Shown piece by piece: positions 50,996-61,845 of a DNA stretch of 64,000 nucleotides. Within the stretch, counting starts at the first letter, position 1. The number at the start of each line of letters is the position of its first letter. Below the pieces are notes generated by a model, which was not told where the DNA came from, ran no database searches, and worked only from the letters and a program-made list of their open reading frames with translations. The position numbers were made by a program, and so were the translations under genes. Origin of the DNA: Terriglobia bacterium (GTDB lineage: Bacteria > Acidobacteriota > Terriglobia > UBA7540); contig JASHON010000136.1 in the NCBI GenBank assembly GCA_030041095.1, positions 1 to 64,000 of the forward strand, in the 5' to 3' direction.

Positions 50996-51818
50996 ACGAA
51001 CAGACTGAGCCGGGAAAAACAAGCACAGGCCGTAGCGGTCTTGGGGGGGCAACCCGATTAACTCCGTTGCTCGAATGACTGGAGTATCCAGGGTCACAAT
51101 CCTGAAGCTGAAACAAGACCTTGGGAACGCCTGTGCTGGATATCACAACCGGACGATGTGGAACCTGAAGTGTCGCCATATTCAGGGCGACGAAATCTGG
51201 CAGTTCTGCTACGCCAAGGAAAAGAATGCCGCTGAGGAGAAGCACGGAACGTTCGGATACGGAGATGTGTGGACGTGGGTTGCTACCGACGCGGATACGA
51301 AACTTGTCCCGTCTTTCATGGTTGGGAACCGTGACGTGGCAACAGCACGGCATTTCATTGATGATTTGGCATCACGTTTGGCTTTCCGCATTCAGCTCAT
51401 AACAGACGGCCACGACGCCTATCTTGAAGCGATCGAGAATGCCTTCGGATGCGACGTCGATTACGCCATGCTGATCAAGATTTATGGTTCAACACAAGAG
51501 GAAACCCGGTACAGTCCGGCAGAGTGCATCGATTGCGTGGTCAAGCCGATCGCTGGAGATCCTGATTTTGATCGAATTGCAACAAGCCACATCGAGCGCC
51601 AAAATCTCACGATGCGGATGTCGATGCGCCGATTTACGCGGTTGACAAATGGCTTCTCAAAGAAAATCCAGAATCACGCCTACGCCTTGGCGATTCACTA
51701 CATGCATTACAATTTCTGCCGGATTCACAAGACCCTACGTGTGACGCCAGCGATGGAAGCTGATCTGACGGATCACGTCTGGACAATCGAGGAAATGCTT
51801 GATAAGGTCGGCCTGTAA
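50996..51818 (+). pseudogene. IS1-family transposase, start codon and frame disrupted
   Basis: The reading frame from ATG 51075 gives 247 residues with a DDE-type core: GDEIWQFCYAKEKN, VATDADTKLVPSF, LITDGHDAYLEAIENAF and HIERQNLTMRMSMRRFTRLTNGFSKK. This is close to IS1-family InsB-like transposases. The missing N-terminus is visible in another frame from 50996: (T)NRLSREKQAQAVAVL, preceded by GGAGACAGGA. There the expected ATG reads ACG, and a shift near the run of seven G (51043-51049) is needed to join GNPINSVARMTG. Both lesions argue for a dead gene rather than programmed frameshifting. Confidence 0.85.
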
Positions 51819-53419: not shown

Positions 53420-53621
53420 ATCTCTTGGCCGCGCACTTTCATTTCTTCAAACCCGCATGCACGGCTCTGCGAGACTCCACGCAAACGCCTTCCAAATATG
53501 AGGCCGGCGGCGTGACGCCGCATGATATTGCAAAGTAAATATTGCGTTTCGAATGCATTTTTGACCCCACTTACAATTCCTCCAGGACGATAAGTGCATG
53601 CGCTTGTACCCGTTTCCAGGT
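53420..53621. other. Region upstream of the sigma54 promoter, possible enhancer sites
   Basis: No gene is supported. Two direct ATATTGC copies (53525-53531 and 53539-53545) are spaced 14 bp apart, centred about 110 bp before the predicted transcription start. This suits an enhancer-binding protein site for the sigma54 promoter, but only position supports that. Confidence 0.35.
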
Positions 53622-53637
53622 TGGCACAGTATTTGCA
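53622..53637 (+). promoter_or_regulatory. Consensus sigma54 (RpoN) promoter
   Basis: TGGCAC-AGTAT-TTGCA matches the -24/-12 consensus, with GG at 53623-53624 and GC at 53635-53636, separated by the required 10 nt. Transcription would start near 53648, 23 nt before a small ORF. A bacterial enhancer-binding protein would be needed. Confidence 0.8.
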
Positions 53638-53670
53638 TGAGCAGATTGCGAAAGGGACGGTTCGTGAAGC

Positions 53671-53844
53671 ATGGGACGCTGGTTGTTTGTGTTCCTTCTA
53701 TTCGGGTTAATACTCGCAGGAACGTGCGGCGTTGAATCCGTCAGCCGGCTCTCCGCGCAAGTGGAACAGGTTTCGTTTCTGGTTGTACCGTCGGTCTTCG
53801 CACTGGCAGCGGTTGTCGGCCTGGGAATGCGGAGGCACGGTTGA
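53671..53844 (+). CDS. 57-residue membrane peptide behind a sigma54 promoter
   Basis: The frame from ATG 53671 to TGA 53842-53844 encodes MGRWLFVFLLFGLILAGTCG (signal peptide or first helix), a short polar stretch (VESVSRLSAQVEQ), then a second hydrophobic stretch VSFLVVPSVFALAAVVGLGM ending RRHG. The tail, Val-Pro then a helix then Arg-Arg, resembles PEP-CTERM sorting signals, although the Pro-Glu-Pro box reads Pro-Ser-Val. A weak AAAGGGA lies 13 nt upstream. It sits alone between a sigma54 promoter and an intrinsic terminator. Function unknown. Confidence 0.6.
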   Translation: MGRWLFVFLLFGLILAGTCGVESVSRLSAQVEQVSFLVVPSVFALAAVVGLGMRRHG

Positions 53845-53908
53845 CTTAAAGGGTTCCGGGGAAGGGGCCGTCTGGCGTTCGCCGGTAACAATTGGAGTTT
53901 GTTCGGAT

Positions 53909-53940
53909 AGCCAGCGAGAAGGTTTTCGCTGGCTTTTTTT
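53909..53940 (+). terminator. Intrinsic terminator of the sigma54 transcript
   Basis: AGCCAGCGA (53909-53917) pairs perfectly with TCGCTGGCT (53926-53934) over 9 bp, with an 8-nt loop and a run of seven T (53934-53940). It ends the transcript begun near 53648, which would be about 290 nt. The 64 nt before the hairpin are G-rich and could be structured (GGCGTTCGCC, among others). Confidence 0.9.
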
Positions 53941-54025
53941 GTCTCCAACAGGTTGCGCCGGTCTGACGATTGACTGAAAAACTTCCTGCCGGCCTTGGAA
54001 ATGCCGTTCGGGCTACGCCACTTAA

Positions 54026-55855
54026 ATGCACACAGAGCCAAAAGAAAAAAATCAGGGCTGGCGAGCCTGGAAAGAGCGGCTCCAGGCCCTGAAGAATATT
54101 CCGCCTTTGCTCGGGTTGATGTGGAAATCAGGGCCGGGCACGGTTGTCATGGGCGCTGGCTCGAGGTTGGCTGCTGGCATTGTGCCTATCGCAACCCTCG
54201 ACATCAGCCGTCTGATCATCAAATACCTCGTCGGGCTAAGCCACAAACATCCACTGCCTCACGATTTCTGGTGGCTGGTGGCGCTGGAGTTTGCGTTTGC
54301 GGCCGGTGGAGCATTGTGCGGCCGCCTCATCGACTATTCCGATACGGTCCTCGCAGACCGCTACACGCGCTACATCAGCGTTCGCGTGATGGAGCACGCT
54401 TCGCATCTCGATTTGGTTCATTACGAAGATCCCGGCTTTTACGACAAGCTCGAGCGGGCGCGCGTGCAGGCGACCGACCGTCTGGCGACCATACGGATGA
54501 CGGGCCAGCTGCTGCAGCAGGTGGTAACCACTGCGAGTTTTATCGTCGGCATCGCTTTCTATGCGCCGTGGTTGTTGATGATTCTCGTGCTTTCCATCGT
54601 GCCTGCTTTCCTGGGCGAAAGCCATTTTGCGTTCCTGAACTACGCGCTCAAATTCCGGCAAACGTCCGAGCGTCGGCAGCTCGATTACCTGCGCGTTCTC
54701 GGCGCGAGCAAGGATAGCGCGAAGGAGCTGAAGCTTTTTGGCCTCGGCTCGTTCCTCAGCGGTGAATACGGGCGCATCTCCGATCGCCTTTTGAAACAGG
54801 ACCTCGCGCTCGCGCGGCAGCGAGGTTGGGTGACGTCGTTACTTTCTGTTGTCACCACTGCCGGATACTACAGCACCTATGGCATCGTGATTTACAGGAC
54901 GATTACGGGCCAATACAGCATCAGCGATCTCTATTTTCTGATCGGTGCAATCGGCGGCGCCAGCTCCAACATTCAGACGATTTTTTCCACGTTCTCAGGC
55001 ATTGCAGACCAGGCGGTTTTTCTCACTGATCTTCTGGAGTTCTTTGAGGTTCGGCCGGCCGTTAAATCCTCGCCGAACGCCATTCCCGCGCCGCGCCCGA
55101 TTCGCGACGGTTTTGAGTTTCAAAACGTTTCCTTCGCCTATCCCGGAACCACGAGACTTATTCTAAGAAACCTGAGCTTTCGATTGGAGCCGGGGCGACG
55201 GATCGCGCTGATCGGCGAAAACGGGCAGGGCAAGACGACTATCGTCAAGCTCATCACCCGGCTCTACGATCCCACGGCCGGTGAAATCCTCCTGGATGGG
55301 GTTAATTTGCGGGAATACAACCTTGAAGACCTCTCACGGGAGATCGGCGTGGTCTTCCAGGACTTCATGCGTTACGAGATGACGGCAGGGGATAACATCG
55401 CCGCTGGCCGGATCGAAGAGCGCCGGAACGTCGCCAGAATACAGGGAGCTGCGCAGCAAAGTGGCGCCCACGACCTCATCGACCGGCTTCCCGCCGGATA
55501 CCAGCAGATGCTGGGACGCAGATTTGAAGGCGGCGTAGACCTCTCGGGCGGTCAATGGCAGAAAATCGCGCTGGCGCGCGCTTACCTGCGGGACGCCCAA
55601 CTTCTGATTTTGGATGAGCCAACGGCGTCGCTCGACGCCCCCTCCGAGCATGAAGTCTTCAACCGGTTCGCAGACTTGACGAGCGGCAAGATGGCTTTGC
55701 TCATCTCTCACCGGTTTTCAACGGTGAGAATGGCGGACAGCATTATGGTTCTCGAGAACGGCAGAATCTCTGAAGCTGGAAGCCATGGCGAATTAATGAT
55801 GTCCGGCGGCCGATACAGCGAAATGTTCGAGCTGCAGGCTTCAAGCTACCGATAG
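54026..55855 (+). CDS. ABC exporter, fused membrane and ATPase domains (MsbA/NdvA-like)
   Basis: A 609-residue half transporter. About six membrane helices occupy residues 40-330. The ATPase domain has Walker A IALIGENGQGKTTIVKL, Q-loop VVFQDFMRYEMT, signature DLSGGQWQKIALARAY, Walker B LLILDEPTASLDAP and the switch His in LISHRF. NBD spacing fits lipid or glucan exporters. It is followed 24 nt later by an NdvB-like glucan synthase gene. NdvA/ChvA exporters of cyclic glucan belong to the same class, so a cooperative role is inferred from gene order. Confidence 0.9.
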   Translation: MHTEPKEKNQGWRAWKERLQALKNIPPLLGLMWKSGPGTVVMGAGSRLAAGIVPIATLDISRLIIKYLVGLSHKHPLPHDFWWLVALEFAFAAGGALCGRLIDYSDTVLADRYTRYISVRVMEHASHLDLVHYEDPGFYDKLERARVQATDRLATIRMTGQLLQQVVTTASFIVGIAFYAPWLLMILVLSIVPAFLGESHFAFLNYALKFRQTSERRQLDYLRVLGASKDSAKELKLFGLGSFLSGEYGRISDRLLKQDLALARQRGWVTSLLSVVTTAGYYSTYGIVIYRTITGQYSISDLYFLIGAIGGASSNIQTIFSTFSGIADQAVFLTDLLEFFEVRPAVKSSPNAIPAPRPIRDGFEFQNVSFAYPGTTRLILRNLSFRLEPGRRIALIGENGQGKTTIVKLITRLYDPTAGEILLDGVNLREYNLEDLSREIGVVFQDFMRYEMTAGDNIAAGRIEERRNVARIQGAAQQSGAHDLIDRLPAGYQQMLGRRFEGGVDLSGGQWQKIALARAYLRDAQLLILDEPTASLDAPSEHEVFNRFADLTSGKMALLISHRFSTVRMADSIMVLENGRISEAGSHGELMMSGGRYSEMFELQASSYR

Positions 55856-55879: not shown

Positions 55880-58800
55880 ATGAAACACGCAAATCAAGCC
55901 GCTCGTGAACCCTGCTCGACATCTACTTTTGGTCTCAGCGGCCCCGGTCCGGCAGCTTCAGGTGAGGTTCCATTCGACGCCTCGGAGGCGGAAAATGAGC
56001 TTGCCAAGTTGTGGTCGGCGGCGCGTCATGAAATAGCGCAATGGACTGCGGAGCCATGCGAGGAGGGCCGCCGCAATCTCCGGGCGCGCTGGCGGAAGGC
56101 CTTTCTCTCCTTCCAGCGAGCGAAAAAATGGATACGCGATCGAGCACGGAACGGACAGAAACTCCCGGAGGGTGTGTATCCCGCGGCCGAGCACGCTCCG
56201 CGAGTGAGGCTGGCTCTGCGCGAAACGCGCGACGCACTGAAGCATCAAACGCCCCCGCCGCTTCCCCTGGTCCAGCGCGGCCAATCTGAAATCGTCCCGC
56301 GTGTCTATGCTTTGGTCCGCAGTTTCCTTCAATCTTCACAATTTCTTCTGAAGGAGCACAGTCTGTTGCACTATCTCAATGCGGCCCAGGAAGACTTGTT
56401 CTTAGAGCTGAACGAGCTTTGGGCGCTGAAGCCGATGTTGCAGTTGGTGGCGCTTGAGGAAATTGCAGCGGCGCTCGATCTGCTTTGCCGGGATTCGCAC
56501 GGCGGAGGCGAAGCTACAGAAACAAGGGAACGGTTTCTGTGCTGGCCGCTCGCAACGCTCTTGTCCTTGCTTCAATCGATCGAGCATACCGATTGGATAT
56601 GGATTTTCGAGCAAGCCAGCCGTACGGAGGCGATTCTTAAAGAAGACGCTGTCTACGCTCAGATGGACTCCGAGAGCCGTGATGGTTATCGGGAAGTTAT
56701 CCGGGAACTCAGCGCCTCATCGGAAAGCTCCGAGACGGAAATTGCCAAGGCAGCCATTGCGCTTGCCATGCAGGCGCCAAGCTGCAGCAAGACAGAAGCG
56801 AGCGGTAAGAATTCCCCGGCCGCCGGACGCAGGCGCCATGTTGGCTACTACCTGGTCGACGACGGGAGAATGCGCCTCGAAAGGCGGATTGACTATCGGC
56901 CGCCGTTTCACCGCAAACTCGAGCGGGCGATCCTTCGCGCACCTGAAGGGTTTTACGTGATCGGAATCGAGATGATGACAGCAGGCATCATCGCGTTCCT
57001 GCTGAGTGGGCTTAATAGGTTCATGCCGCCGCTGAGCGCGCTGGCGCTACTGTTGCTGCCGGCAACCGAATCCGCTGTGAGGATCATGAACCAACTCGTC
57101 AACTTTCTCATCCGGCCACGGTGGCTACCGAAGTTAGACTTTTCAAGTGGAATACCGGCTGGATGCGCAACGATGGTTGTGGTTCCCACTCTCCTGCTTT
57201 CAGAGAGCCAGGTGCGGAAGACTGTGGACGATCTTGAAGTGCGGTATCTCGCGAACCCGGATCCGAACCTGCACTTCGCTCTGCTGACGGATTCGCGCGA
57301 TGTAGCTCATCCCTCAGAGGAGAAGAAAAAACTCGTCCGTCTTTGTGTGAGCCTGGTTGAGCGTCTCAATAGGAAATACCGTACCGAGCGCGCCGGCACG
57401 TTCTTCCTCTTTCACCGCGATCTTGTTTACAACTCCACTGAAGGCGCCTGGATGGGTTGGGAGCGAAAACGTGGCAAACTGCTGGATTTGAACAATCTGC
57501 TCCGTGGAGGCCCTGATAGTTTTCCCACCAAGGTCGGTGATCTCTCCATTCTGCCGCGCATTCGTTACATCATTACGCTAGACGCGGATACCCAGCTTCC
57601 TCGCGACGTTGGCCGGAAGCTGGTGGGCACGCTGGCTCATCCCTTAAATCGCGCCATTGTGGACCCGCAAACGAATACGGTCACGAAGGGTTACGGAATC
57701 CTCCAGCCTCGCGTGGGCATCAGCATCTCCTCCGCCTCCCGGTCGCGGCTGGCAAGAATTTATTCAGGGCAGACCGGCTTCGACCTCTATACGCGCGCAA
57801 CCTCCGACGTCTATCAGGACCTCTTTGGTGAAGGCAGTTTCACCGGAAAAGGCATATACGAAGTGGATGTCTATCAGCAAGTGTTGGGACGGCGCTTTCC
57901 CGCAAACGCTCTGCTGAGTCACGATCTGATTGAAGGCTCGTACGCAAGGACCGGCCTGGTTTCCGATATTGAGGTGATTGACGAATATCCTTCGCACTTT
58001 AGCGCGTATAGCCGGCGCAAACACCGTTGGGTACGCGGCGATTGGCAAATCCTGCGCTGGCTTTTCTCGCACGTGCCAGGCTGCTCCGGAGAGCGGGCGC
58101 TGAATCCACTGTCGTTCATCTCGCGCTGGAAAATCCTCGACAATCTGAGACGCAGCCTGATTGAGGCGGCCACGCTTGCCCTCCTGGTCGCTGGCTGGTT
58201 CTTTCTTCCCGGCGGTCCGGTCTATTGGACGATTGCCACACTCGTGCTCATCGTATTGCCTTCATACCTGCAGTTTTTCATTTCTTTGACGTTGGTGATG
58301 GACTCAGAGAATTGGAGTGGCGCGGTCAAGCAAGCGGTCAATGGTCTCGTCGTCGAACAAGTGAACGTCCTCTTCACCATTGCGTTTCTGCTGCATCAAG
58401 CCCTGATGACACTCGATGCAATCGTGCGCACGCTCGTTCGCCTGGTCCTGACCCACAAACGGCTGCTGGAGTGGGAGACAGCCGCAGAAACGGAGCTCGG
58501 AGAGGAGAGGAGAACTCCAGTGGAGTTTTGTCTGGACCTCACTCCGTGGGTCTCATTGGGTTTGGCCATCAGCCTGGCGTCGGTCTGCCCGCACTCGCTC
58601 CCGGAGGCGCTGCCGTTCCTCTTCGCGTGGGCGTGCTCGGGAGCGATGCGTCATTGGATTGATAGCCCGTTGCCGCCTTTGCGTTATCGGTTGTCCGCTG
58701 AGGACACTCAATTTCTGCGCAAATCGGCTCTCTGCACCTGGCGATTCTTTCGCGAATGGGGCGGAAGAGCGGCGAACGGGCTCGTTCCAGACAACGTGCA

Positions 58801-60499
58801 GGAGACGCCGCTTGCTTCCGCAAATATCATCTCACCTACCAACCTCGGCATGCTGCTCGCGGCCCGGCTTGCGGCTTTTGATCTGGGCTACTTGACGGCC
58901 GAAGATTTCGCGGAGGAAACCGAACTTACTTTGACGGCAGCGCTTCGCCTTCCCCGATTCAAAGGCCACTTTTACAACTGGAATGACATCCAGACGCTCC
59001 AGCCCCTCCCTCCGCTATTCGTTTCCACAGTCGATAGCGGAAATCTCGCCGCATGTCTCTGGATTCTGAAGCAAGGCTGTGCGGAGCTGGAAGGACAGCC
59101 GCTCTTTCGCAAAGCGTATTGGAATGCATTGCGCGATCTTTTAGCTCTGCTGAGAGAATTGGCCGGAAAGCAACCGTCTTCCGCGGCGATTGCGACGCTC
59201 GAAGAGCTGCATGGCATATTCGACGCGTGCGGTGACGAGCCTGGCTTGTGGATACTCTCTCTTCCGGAGCTGGAAGAGAAGGCGGCGGAAGTCTTGAAAA
59301 GTCTTCCGCAGGATAATGGCCTGCCAGAGCGCTGCGCCCTGGTTTGGTGGTCGGCGGAGCTGCGTGCCCGCCTCGCTGCGATTCGAGCCACAGCCGAAAA
59401 CTTCACGCCGTGGCTGCTTCCCAAATACCGGGCCTTCTTTCTGCGTCCCGGCACGCGGCCCATCGTAGACGCGGCAGACATTACTCTGGGCACGCTTCCA
59501 GGAATTTTAGGCGGACTCGCGGATCGGCTGCATGGACTGAGCGAGAGCGACGACATCAGTCCCAGAGTGCGCTCGGACGCACGCATGACGTTGGGCGTCA
59601 CTCAAGCCTGCTCGGATCGTCTTCGTCGCTTGCTCGATTCCCTTCGCCAATCAGCGTCAATTGCCGACGCGCTGGTGGCAGGTATGGACTTTCGCTTTTT
59701 GTATAACTCTGCGCGGCGTGTTCTATCCGTCGGATATAGCGTCGCGGCCGACCGCCTGGAAAAGTCCTGTTATGATTTCCTGGCGTCGGAGGCGCGAACG
59801 GCGAGCTTTGTGGCGATCGCCAAGGGCGATATCGGGCAGAGAAGCTGGTTTCAGCTTGGGAGAAGGCATACCGTGTTTCACGGGCAGCGAACGCTGATGT
59901 CCTGGTCCGGAACGATGTTCGAATACCTGATGCCGGCGCTGTGGATGAAATCGTATGGAGATACGATCCTCGGCCAAAGCCAGAATACGGCCGTTCGCTG
60001 CCAGAAAATCCTGGCTTCGAAAGCGCGAAGACCGTGGGGCGTATCGGAAGCTGCATATGCGCTGCGTGACGCCACCGGCCGCTATCAATATAAATCCTTC
60101 GGCCTTCCTCCGCTTGCCCTGAAACAGGATATAACACCCGACGTAGTCTCGCCCTATGCCACGTTCCTCGCCTTGCCGATCGATCCCCACGCAGCAATGA
60201 GAAATCTGAAGCGAATGCAGCGGAAGGGCTGGTTCGGTGTTTATGGGTTCTACGAGTCCGCGGACTACAATCCTCCGGGCGGGCACAAAGGTTCGGAACA
60301 CGAGTTGGTACGCGCGTGGATGGCTCATCACCAGGGTATGATTCTGTTGGCGCTGAGCAATCAGCTTTCGGCATCGGCGATGCAACGGCGCTTCCACGCC
60401 GAGCCACGAGTGCAAGCCACGGAATTCATCCTTCACGAACACGTTCCGGATTCCATGCCCGTTGTCCCCGCCGAAGCGCCGCTGCTTTCTGTCGGGTAG
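55880..60499 (+). CDS. NdvB-like glucan synthase: GT84 plus glucoamylase-like domain, no phosphorylase domain
   Basis: A 1539-residue membrane protein. The N-terminal 350 residues are helical and soluble. Membrane segments lie near 356-405, 760-805, 825-855 and 885-925. Between them is the GT84-type glycosyltransferase: ALLTDSRDV, TLDADTQLPRDVG (D568, D570), GEGSFTGKGIYEVD, LLSHDLIEGSYAR and RKHRWVRGDWQ. After the membrane region comes a glycoamylase-like domain (about 1310-1525: MSWSGTMFEYLMPALWM, WGVSEAAYALRD, ARAWMAHHQGMILLAL-like). Typical NdvB/Cgs proteins are about 2800 residues and add a C-terminal GH94 phosphorylase domain that limits chain length; this one stops after HEHVPDSMPV. The stop region shows no obvious frameshift continuation. 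Confidence 0.88.
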   Translation: MKHANQAAREPCSTSTFGLSGPGPAASGEVPFDASEAENELAKLWSAARHEIAQWTAEPCEEGRRNLRARWRKAFLSFQRAKKWIRDRARNGQKLPEGVYPAAEHAPRVRLALRETRDALKHQTPPPLPLVQRGQSEIVPRVYALVRSFLQSSQFLLKEHSLLHYLNAAQEDLFLELNELWALKPMLQLVALEEIAAALDLLCRDSHGGGEATETRERFLCWPLATLLSLLQSIEHTDWIWIFEQASRTEAILKEDAVYAQMDSESRDGYREVIRELSASSESSETEIAKAAIALAMQAPSCSKTEASGKNSPAAGRRRHVGYYLVDDGRMRLERRIDYRPPFHRKLERAILRAPEGFYVIGIEMMTAGIIAFLLSGLNRFMPPLSALALLLLPATESAVRIMNQLVNFLIRPRWLPKLDFSSGIPAGCATMVVVPTLLLSESQVRKTVDDLEVRYLANPDPNLHFALLTDSRDVAHPSEEKKKLVRLCVSLVERLNRKYRTERAGTFFLFHRDLVYNSTEGAWMGWERKRGKLLDLNNLLRGGPDSFPTKVGDLSILPRIRYIITLDADTQLPRDVGRKLVGTLAHPLNRAIVDPQTNTVTKGYGILQPRVGISISSASRSRLARIYSGQTGFDLYTRATSDVYQDLFGEGSFTGKGIYEVDVYQQVLGRRFPANALLSHDLIEGSYARTGLVSDIEVIDEYPSHFSAYSRRKHRWVRGDWQILRWLFSHVPGCSGERALNPLSFISRWKILDNLRRSLIEAATLALLVAGWFFLPGGPVYWTIATLVLIVLPSYLQFFISLTLVMDSENWSGAVKQAVNGLVVEQVNVLFTIAFLLHQALMTLDAIVRTLVRLVLTHKRLLEWETAAETELGEERRTPVEFCLDLTPWVSLGLAISLASVCPHSLPEALPFLFAWACSGAMRHWIDSPLPPLRYRLSAEDTQFLRKSALCTWRFFREWGGRAANGLVPDNVQETPLASANIISPTNLGMLLAARLAAFDLGYLTAEDFAEETELTLTAALRLPRFKGHFYNWNDIQTLQPLPPLFVSTVDSGNLAACLWILKQGCAELEGQPLFRKAYWNALRDLLALLRELAGKQPSSAAIATLEELHGIFDACGDEPGLWILSLPELEEKAAEVLKSLPQDNGLPERCALVWWSAELRARLAAIRATAENFTPWLLPKYRAFFLRPGTRPIVDAADITLGTLPGILGGLADRLHGLSESDDISPRVRSDARMTLGVTQACSDRLRRLLDSLRQSASIADALVAGMDFRFLYNSARRVLSVGYSVAADRLEKSCYDFLASEARTASFVAIAKGDIGQRSWFQLGRRHTVFHGQRTLMSWSGTMFEYLMPALWMKSYGDTILGQSQNTAVRCQKILASKARRPWGVSEAAYALRDATGRYQYKSFGLPPLALKQDITPDVVSPYATFLALPIDPHAAMRNLKRMQRKGWFGVYGFYESADYNPPGGHKGSEHELVRAWMAHHQGMILLALSNQLSASAMQRRFHAEPRVQATEFILHEHVPDSMPVVPAEAPLLSVG

Positions 60500-60668: not shown

Positions 60669-61775
60669 CTATGCGCCACTGTTCGTGGTCTGCACCGCGT
60701 CGGCGGACCGTTGCAGGGCGCGGCTGCCCCCCACCTCGACCCGCGTCCTGGGCAAGCATTGCGGGTATCGCTCCTGGAGGAATTTGACGAGCCCTTCCCG
60801 CACATAGCAGCGCAGATTCCAAAGCTGTGGCGAGTTCGGAGAATCCATCAGCGCCCGCAATGTGATCGCGTGCTCGTCCGCGTCAGTTACCTGCAGGACG
60901 CAGCACTGGCCCAGCCAATCGGGAGAAGACTCAACGAGGCGACGAAATTCCGCGCGGACGGCATCGACGGGAACCGTGTAGTCCGTATAGATCAGAACGT
61001 ATCCGAGCAGGTTTGAGGTCGTGCGTGTCCAATTCTGGAACGGCTGCTCGATGAAGTAGGTGAGCGGAACGACAAGCCGGATGAGATCCCACACGCGCAC
61101 CACAACATAGGTGGTCCCGATCTCTTCAATCCATCCCCACTGTCCGTCTACGATCACCACGTCATCGATCCGAATGGGTTGCGTCAGCGCAATTTGAAAG
61201 CCGGCAATCAGGTTGCCCAACGTTGATTTGGCCGCCATGCCCAACACCAGGCCTGCGATCCCGGCAGAGGCTAGGAGACTGGCGCCCACTTCCCGTATTT
61301 GGGGAATCGTCATGAGCATGATGGCCAGGGTGATGATCGCAATCACGATGATGACGATCCGGCGGAGCACGCGGACTTGAGTGTGGATTTTTCGCGCGAC
61401 AAGATTATCCTGAACGTCGGTGCGATAGCGGGCTGCGACCAGATCGCCAAGCACGGTGGTGACTAAAATCGCGAACCAGGCCACCACGGCTATCTGCCCC
61501 AGGCCCAGGACGTGCGCCAGCACCGTTCTTGCTGTGTGGGGAATCGGAACCAGGGACACCACGACCAGCAGAGCGAGGAAGATGAGAAGCCATTTCGCCG
61601 GTGCGCGGCCATGATGGATGAGAGAAGCTTCAAGCGCATGACGCTCCGGATGACGCACAACGCGCTTCAAAAGAGCAAACACCACGCGGTGGGCGGCCAA
61701 GGCGATCACAATGGCCGCCACGACGATGCCCGCGGAGATCAACAGCCCCTCTCCATGTCTCATCAGGACTGCCAT
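60669..61775 (-). CDS. MscS-family mechanosensitive ion channel
   Basis: A 368-residue inner-membrane channel. Four helices precede the pore helix (ASLLASAGIAGLVLGMAAKSTLGNLIAGFQIALTQPIRIDD begins at about 170), which has the Gly/Ala pattern of TM3 in MscS. The cytoplasmic beta domain follows (DVVIVDGQWGWIEEIGTTYVVVRVWD; then LTYFIEQPFQNWTRT). The C-terminal 80 residues are alpha/beta. ATG 61775 is preceded by AAGGAGG at 8 nt; an in-frame ATG at 61799 lacks one. It probably protects against osmotic down-shock; its proximity to a glucan synthase, also osmotic-stress related, may be coincidental. Confidence 0.93.
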   Translation of the reverse strand: MAVLMRHGEGLLISAGIVVAAIVIALAAHRVVFALLKRVVRHPERHALEASLIHHGRAPAKWLLIFLALLVVVSLVPIPHTARTVLAHVLGLGQIAVVAWFAILVTTVLGDLVAARYRTDVQDNLVARKIHTQVRVLRRIVIIVIAIITLAIMLMTIPQIREVGASLLASAGIAGLVLGMAAKSTLGNLIAGFQIALTQPIRIDDVVIVDGQWGWIEEIGTTYVVVRVWDLIRLVVPLTYFIEQPFQNWTRTTSNLLGYVLIYTDYTVPVDAVRAEFRRLVESSPDWLGQCCVLQVTDADEHAITLRALMDSPNSPQLWNLRCYVREGLVKFLQERYPQCLPRTRVEVGGSRALQRSADAVQTTNSGA

Positions 61776-61845
61776 GAATCGAACCTCCTTGGCCCGCATT
61801 ATTCATGAATTGCTACCTGCGCATCAACCCAGGAAGGAGTTGACA

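What the first reader, a model, noticed from the sequence alone, without database searches (positions are those of the whole stretch)
53525..53940. Stand-alone sigma54 transcription unit encoding a 57-residue peptide with a sorting-signal-like tail
A textbook -24/-12 promoter (TGGCAC-N5-TTGCA), a 57-codon ORF and a perfect terminator define a transcript of about 290 nt. The peptide has a signal-like first helix, a short polar middle, then Val-Pro, a helix and Arg-Arg, resembling a minimal PEP-CTERM protein. PEP-CTERM genes of floc-forming bacteria are known to use RpoN with PrsK/PrsR, so the promoter type fits. Upstream ATATTGC direct repeats could bind the activator. The G-rich 3' region may also make it a dual-function RNA.
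Basis: partly seen in the sequence, partly recalled or inferred. Interest (0 to 1): 0.78.

Follow-up and report, generated by a model that had tools for sequence, protein, structure and literature searches.

The report
Sigma54 glucan-export operon's small membrane protein
A tiny two-helix membrane protein behind a conserved sigma54-type promoter is the first gene of an apparent operon for making and exporting a cyclic glucan in one family of Acidobacteria; it is not a stand-alone surface-sorting peptide.

Summary
The promoter, 57-codon ORF and terminator are real, but the unit is not stand-alone. Homologues of the ORF occur in 11 genomes of one acidobacterial family, always directly upstream of the same ABC exporter gene, which is followed by a cyclic beta-1,2-glucan synthase (NdvB/Cgs) homologue in all 8 loci that can be judged (3 contigs end). 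TGG-N8-TTGCW (the -24/-12 core) lies once within 300 nt upstream of the ORF in 11 of 11 loci, never on the other strand there or between ORF and exporter; shuffles hold it in 0.85-2.1% per locus. Codon-position patterns show selection on the protein. The terminator is confined to the window's clade (3 of 11 loci), so it looks like a late-added attenuator inside the operon. The peptide is predicted as two helices; no PEP-CTERM or other sorting model hits it, although the genome has exosortases and 20 PEP-CTERM matches; no PrsR passes its cut-off in 15 genomes. Best reading: a lineage-specific small membrane subunit or modulator of a sigma54-controlled glucan export system. Gene order, promoter and coding status are well supported; what the protein does is inferred. 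Similarity to DUF1328 is weak and unproven.

The parts
53525..53545 (+). ATATTGC direct repeat (53525-53531, 53539-53545), possible activator site
   Evidence: read directly; not conserved as a repeat in the 10 relatives
53622..53637 (+). sigma54-type -24/-12 element TGGCACAGTATTTGCA
   Evidence: core TGG-N8-TTGCW present upstream of the ORF in 11 of 11 loci
53671..53844 (+). 57-aa small two-helix membrane protein, first gene of the proposed operon
53909..53941 (+). intrinsic terminator-like hairpin and T run between small ORF and exporter gene; proposed attenuator
   Evidence: similar hairpins in G001 and G014 only (3 of 11 loci with the window)
54026..55855 (+). ABC exporter of the ABCB/MsbA type (609 aa), proposed cyclic glucan exporter
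55880..60499 (+). cyclic beta-1,2-glucan synthase homologue (1539 aa), starts 25 nt after the exporter gene
   Evidence: adjacency conserved

Best explanation
The ORF encodes a small inner-membrane hairpin protein that is the first gene of a sigma54-dependent operon: small protein, ABC exporter, cyclic beta-glucan synthase. An unknown NtrC-type activator opens the promoter; the small protein is made with, or in excess over, the exporter and synthase, and most likely sits with one of them in the membrane as an accessory or modulating subunit. In the window's clade a hairpin with a T run between the small gene and the exporter gene stops part of the transcripts, so that more small protein than exporter is made. 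Shown by sequence: gene order, conserved promoter element, selection on the protein, clade-restricted hairpin. Inferred: co-transcription, read-through, glucan as the cargo, and the accessory role.
For: Strong profile matches (E 2.2e-17 or better) in 11 of 299 class genomes, all in the window's family and all just before the exporter orthologue; of 15 family genomes with an exporter orthologue whose upstream side can be read, 11 have it. Promoter core in 11 of 11, with differing spacers and distances from -49 to -256. Substitutions at codon positions 1/2/3: 19/2/32 (G011-G024), 4/2/14 (G031-G019), 3/2/11 (G031-G036). Shine-Dalgarno-like stretches before the ORF in most loci. 8 of 11 loci have no such terminator, and the space from stop codon to exporter match is as short as 59 nt. 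Synthase hits NdvB/Cgs at 7e-222. In the exporter tree the 11 carriers need 2 label changes against 6.4 in shuffles. Helices 2-22 and 28-56 (mean pLDDT 68.7).
Against: No expression or interaction data. The exporter scores below the curated cut-offs of the glucan exporter models (226 of 733 and 182.1 of 585.4 bits), so the cargo rests on its neighbour. Four family genomes have exporter and synthase without the small gene (G009, G010, G023, G029), so it is dispensable there. The motif pattern was fixed after seeing several loci, and the loci are related (three clades).
Confidence: 0.62

Rival explanations
1. Leader peptide with transcription attenuation: translation of the ORF, not its product, decides whether the hairpin forms and whether the exporter gene is transcribed.
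For: In the window, G001 and G014 a hairpin with a T run lies between ORF and exporter gene; in G001 the T run abuts the putative exporter start. No promoter-like site was found between them.
Against: The hairpin is missing in 8 of 11 loci while the protein is kept; selection acts along the whole ORF; in the window the hairpin starts 64 nt after the stop codon, far for ribosome-coupled control.
Confidence: 0.15
2. Minimal PEP-CTERM-like or other exosortase substrate cut to a short peptide.
For: Val-Pro before the second helix and Arg-Arg after it in the window peptide; the Pro is invariant in 11 of 11; the genome has an XrtA-type exosortase (213.4 bits, cut-off 208), PrsT and 20 PEP-CTERM matches.
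Against: No Pro-Glu-Pro; TIGR02595 and all other NCBIfam CTERM models miss it; two carriers lack a detected exosortase (incomplete genomes).
Confidence: 0.06
3. Far-diverged member of the DUF1328/UPF0391 small membrane protein family recruited to this operon. This is about descent and can hold together with the best explanation.
For: Weak matches to PRK13682 models (best E 0.0025), which match genuine DUF1328 proteins strongly; profile comparison with DUF1328 gives probability 66.8% over 40 columns; similar length and hydrophobic pattern.
Against: Pfam DUF1328 does not hit; 18.1 bits against a cut-off of 85; genuine DUF1328 genes exist separately in relatives; hydrophobic composition alone can give such scores.
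Confidence: 0.25
4. Dual-function or purely regulatory small RNA; the ORF is incidental.
For: Stable fold of the 3' part (z -3.01), to which the terminator contributes much.
Against: ORF conserved with coding-type substitutions; 3' part not conserved outside the clade; no Rfam match in the window.
Confidence: 0.04

Closest known systems
NdvA/NdvB (ChvA/ChvB, Cgt/Cgs) cyclic beta-1,2-glucan export and synthesis
   Same: ABC exporter gene next to a synthase gene; synthase hits solved NdvB and Cgs (8rf0, 8rf9) over residues 226-1102 at 7e-222
   Different: synthase about 1540 aa instead of about 2800; sigma54-type promoter; an additional small membrane protein gene; exporter below the ChvA/NdvA model cut-offs
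RpoN-dependent PEP-CTERM gene pepA of Aquincola tertiaricarbonis (PMC9850573, passages seen)
   Same: -24/-12 promoter mapped upstream, and a putative stem-loop terminator between it and the next gene, prsT
   Different: pepA has a PEP-CTERM domain; the window peptide has none, and its neighbour is an exporter, not prsT
DUF1328/UPF0391 (YtjA) small membrane proteins
   Same: similar length, two hydrophobic helices, basic C-terminal end; weak profile similarity
   Different: not hit by Pfam PF07043; different gene context
FeuP/FeuN control of ndvA in Sinorhizobium meliloti (PMC3616915, passages seen)
   Same: cyclic glucan exporter gene under a dedicated response regulator, with a modulator (FeuN) in the circuit
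   Different: feuN is predicted there to be co-transcribed with feuPQ, not with ndvA; that FeuP does not work through sigma54 is recalled, not tested

Membership tests
PEP-CTERM proteins | C-terminal Pro-Glu-Pro motif, helix, basic end, matched by TIGR02595 | tested here: not met
   no hit at E up to 10; none on contig C123 among 20 in the genome; no PEP in 11 of 11
PEP-CTERM proteins | exosortase in the genome | tested here: met
   3 places over cut-off in G000; none found in carriers G018 and G031, 80-84% complete
PrsK/PrsR control | PrsR (TIGR02915) over the curated cut-off | tested here: not met
   0 of 15 genomes; best 453.6 against 502.6 bits; that protein scores higher with AtoC
PrsK/PrsR control | PrsK (TIGR02916) in the genome | not tested
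sigma54 promoters | GG and GC ten bases apart within the TGGCAC / TTGCA consensus | tested here: met
   53622-53637; core conserved in 11 of 11
sigma54 promoters | RpoN in the genome | tested here: met
   one match in G000, 7.1e-56; 38 of 41 genomes
sigma54 promoters | RpoN-dependent start mapped | not testable with these tools
   needs RNA
DUF1328/UPF0391 | match to PF07043 or PRK13682 models over cut-off | tested here: not met
DUF1328/UPF0391 | profile-profile similarity | tested here: inconclusive
   66.8% probability, 40 columns
Cyclic beta-1,2-glucan synthase (downstream gene) | homology to NdvB/Cgs and a Glycoamylase domain | tested here: met
Cyclic beta-1,2-glucan synthase (downstream gene) | C-terminal phosphorylase-like part (recalled feature of NdvB) | tested here: inconclusive
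   1539 aa and no such Pfam hit against about 2800 aa in 8rf0/8rf9; not aligned further
NdvA/ChvA glucan exporter (ABC gene) | score over the NF010178 or TIGR01192 cut-off | tested here: not met
   226 of 733 and 182.1 of 585.4 bits

The most novel reading that the evidence does not exclude
A previously unnamed small membrane protein family acts as a dedicated third component of cyclic glucan export in Acidobacteria: it gates or assembles the exporter-synthase pair, and its supply relative to the exporter is set by sigma54 activation plus, in one clade, a newly gained attenuator. That would put envelope glucan export in these bacteria under an enhancer-driven environmental switch.
Probability: 0.35. 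Interest if true: 0.6.

Novelty: new variant of a known kind. Interest (0 to 1): 0.42.

Why it matters
It turns an apparent orphan peptide into a testable part of a glucan synthesis and export system in a little-studied phylum, names the promoter class likely to control it, and offers a small membrane protein family that no Pfam or NCBIfam model reaches at its cut-off. It also warns against calling a small ORF stand-alone because a terminator follows it.

Tried and rejected
PEP-CTERM membership, control by a curated PrsR, a stand-alone unit and an RNA-only function were tested and rejected or disfavoured, as told in the other fields. A genome-wide sigma54 regulon by pattern gave no enrichment (18 sites against 17 for the reversed control). 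The ATATTGC repeats as a conserved activator site failed. A PDB profile search with the 11 small proteins gave nothing below E 0.22. The named-genome scan found one exporter relative, in a record titled Edaphobacter aggregans, so phylum and class are inferred from that name and the family is not named. Phylum-wide search: 1 of 396 genomes matched, the window's own. Eight weak class matches (E 0.001-0.0075) were not examined further and are counted as misses. Paper searches; none showed in its listing a sigma54-driven small protein with a cyclic glucan exporter, but only open-licence papers are held, and I read passages of two papers only.

Rows dropped: the exporter tree used 19 of 22 orthologues; G016 (match at a contig start), G055 and G058 were left out, because I did not fetch their surroundings. 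The promoter count used all 11 loci. Codon counts were printed only for pairs of equal length with under 70 differences (5 pairs). Exosortase was sought with PF09721 in 41 genomes and with TIGR02602 in 4.

Full report
What is there. The window holds TGGCACAGTATTTGCA at 53622-53637, a 57-codon ORF at 53671-53844 and an 11-pair hairpin with a T run at 53909-53941. The expected transcript from about 53648 to 53940 is about 293 nt.

It is not alone. The ORF is followed on the same strand by an ABC exporter gene (54026-55855) and, 25 nt later, by a 1539-aa gene (55880-60499) whose product hits the solved cyclic beta-1,2-glucan synthases 8rf0 (NdvB) and 8rf9 at 7e-222 and carries a Glycoamylase domain. 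Searching 61 genomes with the exporter gave orthologues at E up to 1e-100 in 22 of 61. In the 18 stretches that I fetched around them, the synthase homologue follows the exporter in 14 of 18; in three the contig ends within about 400 nt (L072, L076, L077) and in one another gene follows (L084). Among the 11 carriers of the small gene, counting the window, the synthase follows in 8, and 3 cannot be judged (G018, G019, G036).

The small gene is a family. A single-sequence search found clear relatives in G014 (55% identity) and G001 (42%). Looking upstream of the exporter orthologues gave eleven small proteins. A profile of them, searched over 299 class genomes, found strong matches (E 2.2e-17 or better) in exactly these 11, all in the window's family, all at the place before the exporter gene; since the profile was built from them, the news is that no other genome searched has one. 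Eight further matches at E 0.001-0.0075 are scattered and mostly lie in longer frames. Of 396 genomes of the phylum only the own one matched. Of the 16 family genomes with the exporter, G016 cannot be judged (the match begins at a contig end), 11 have the small gene, and G009, G010, G023 and G029 do not. None of the 6 orthologues outside the family has a strong match.

The protein is under selection. In close pairs, differences at codon positions 1, 2 and 3 are 19, 2, 32 (G011-G024), 3, 2, 11 (G031-G036), 4, 2, 14 (G031-G019), 7, 2, 11 (G036-G019) and 19, 13, 31 (G004-G018). Length stays at 54-58 residues; Met1, a Pro at the start of helix 2 and a Gly near its end are invariant. AlphaFold gives helices 2-22 and 28-56 at mean pLDDT 68.7, pTM 0.37, so two helices are plausible and their packing is not resolved.

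The promoter is conserved. TGG-N8-TTGCW occurs once in the 300 nt before the ORF in 11 of 11 loci, 0 times on the opposite strand there, 0 times between ORF start and exporter; dinucleotide shuffles hold it in 0.85-2.1%. Spacer letters and distance to the ORF (-49 to -256) differ between lineages while the core stays. The pattern was fixed after I had seen several loci, and the loci fall into three clades, so the 11 are not independent. A bare match means little: 18 in the genome against 17 for the reversed pattern, and 8 matches of the looser core on both strands of the window. RpoN is present.

The terminator looks young. Hairpins with a T run lie between ORF and exporter in G000, G001 and G014 only, which form one fully supported clade of the exporter tree. 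In the other eight loci my hairpin scan found none with such a tail, and the space from stop codon to exporter match can be 59-64 nt (G036, G019). In G001 the T run ends where the putative exporter ATG begins. Neither a sigma70-type site (window only) nor the sigma54 core was seen in the gap, so I infer read-through with partial termination. The start codon of the exporter is not established.

Sorting signal. The peptide itself is not matched by any CTERM model and lacks Pro-Glu-Pro. A PrsR over its cut-off was found in 0 of 15 genomes; PrsK was not tested.

DUF1328. Weak matches to PRK13682 models appear for some of the 11 members, and the same models match genuine DUF1328 proteins. Profile comparison gives 66.8% over 40 columns. 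Pfam does not agree. I treat common descent as possible, not shown.

Mechanism. The best-supported account is a sigma54-controlled operon of small membrane protein, exporter and glucan synthase, in which the small protein modulates or stabilises its membrane partners. In Sinorhizobium meliloti the cyclic glucan exporter gene ndvA is under the response regulator FeuP, with FeuN as a modulator (PMC3616915, passages seen). A mechanosensitive channel gene lies next to the synthase gene in the window (60669-61799, minus strand), which fits an osmotic theme but is one locus only. RpoN-driven transcription with a stem-loop before the next gene has been described for pepA-prsT in Aquincola (PMC9850573, passages seen), so the layout has a parallel.

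Limits. All is comparative sequence evidence. The taxon is inferred from one named relative. The exporter's cargo, the activator, the read-through and the small protein's role are inferences.

Noticed in passing
55880-60499: The glucan synthase homologue is about 1540 aa here and mostly about 1450-1600 aa in relatives with complete copies, against about 2800 aa in NdvB/Cgs; the C-terminal part appears to be missing throughout this group.
   Followed up: partly
upstream of the exporter gene in L032, L036, L037, L038 (111-159 nt before the match): The four family genomes without the small gene share AGGCAA...ATTGCC sites upstream of the exporter, which are near-palindromic and also have GG and GC ten bases apart.
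   Followed up: no
L084:8221: In G048, outside the family and without the small gene, TGGCCAACTGATTGCT lies 85 nt before the exporter ORF, so sigma54 control of the exporter may be older than the small gene.
   Followed up: no
L023, reverse strand, about 34-75 nt before the promoter element: G001 has an inverted repeat CTTTATGTGAA / TTCACATAAAG before its -24/-12 element, a possible activator site.
   Followed up: no
L135:8955 (minus): TGGTGGTAAGATTGCA lies about 108 nt before the XrtA-type exosortase ORF of the own genome, which sits beside a PrsT gene and a polysaccharide chain-length gene.
   Followed up: no
60669-61799: Mechanosensitive channel gene (MS_channel domain) convergent with the synthase gene.
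   Followed up: no
51075-51818: IS1-type transposase gene between a Fic gene and a hypothetical gene, upstream of the PPK2 gene.
   Followed up: no
53571-54041 (minus): A 156-codon open frame runs antisense across the whole unit; probably a by-product of composition.
   Followed up: no
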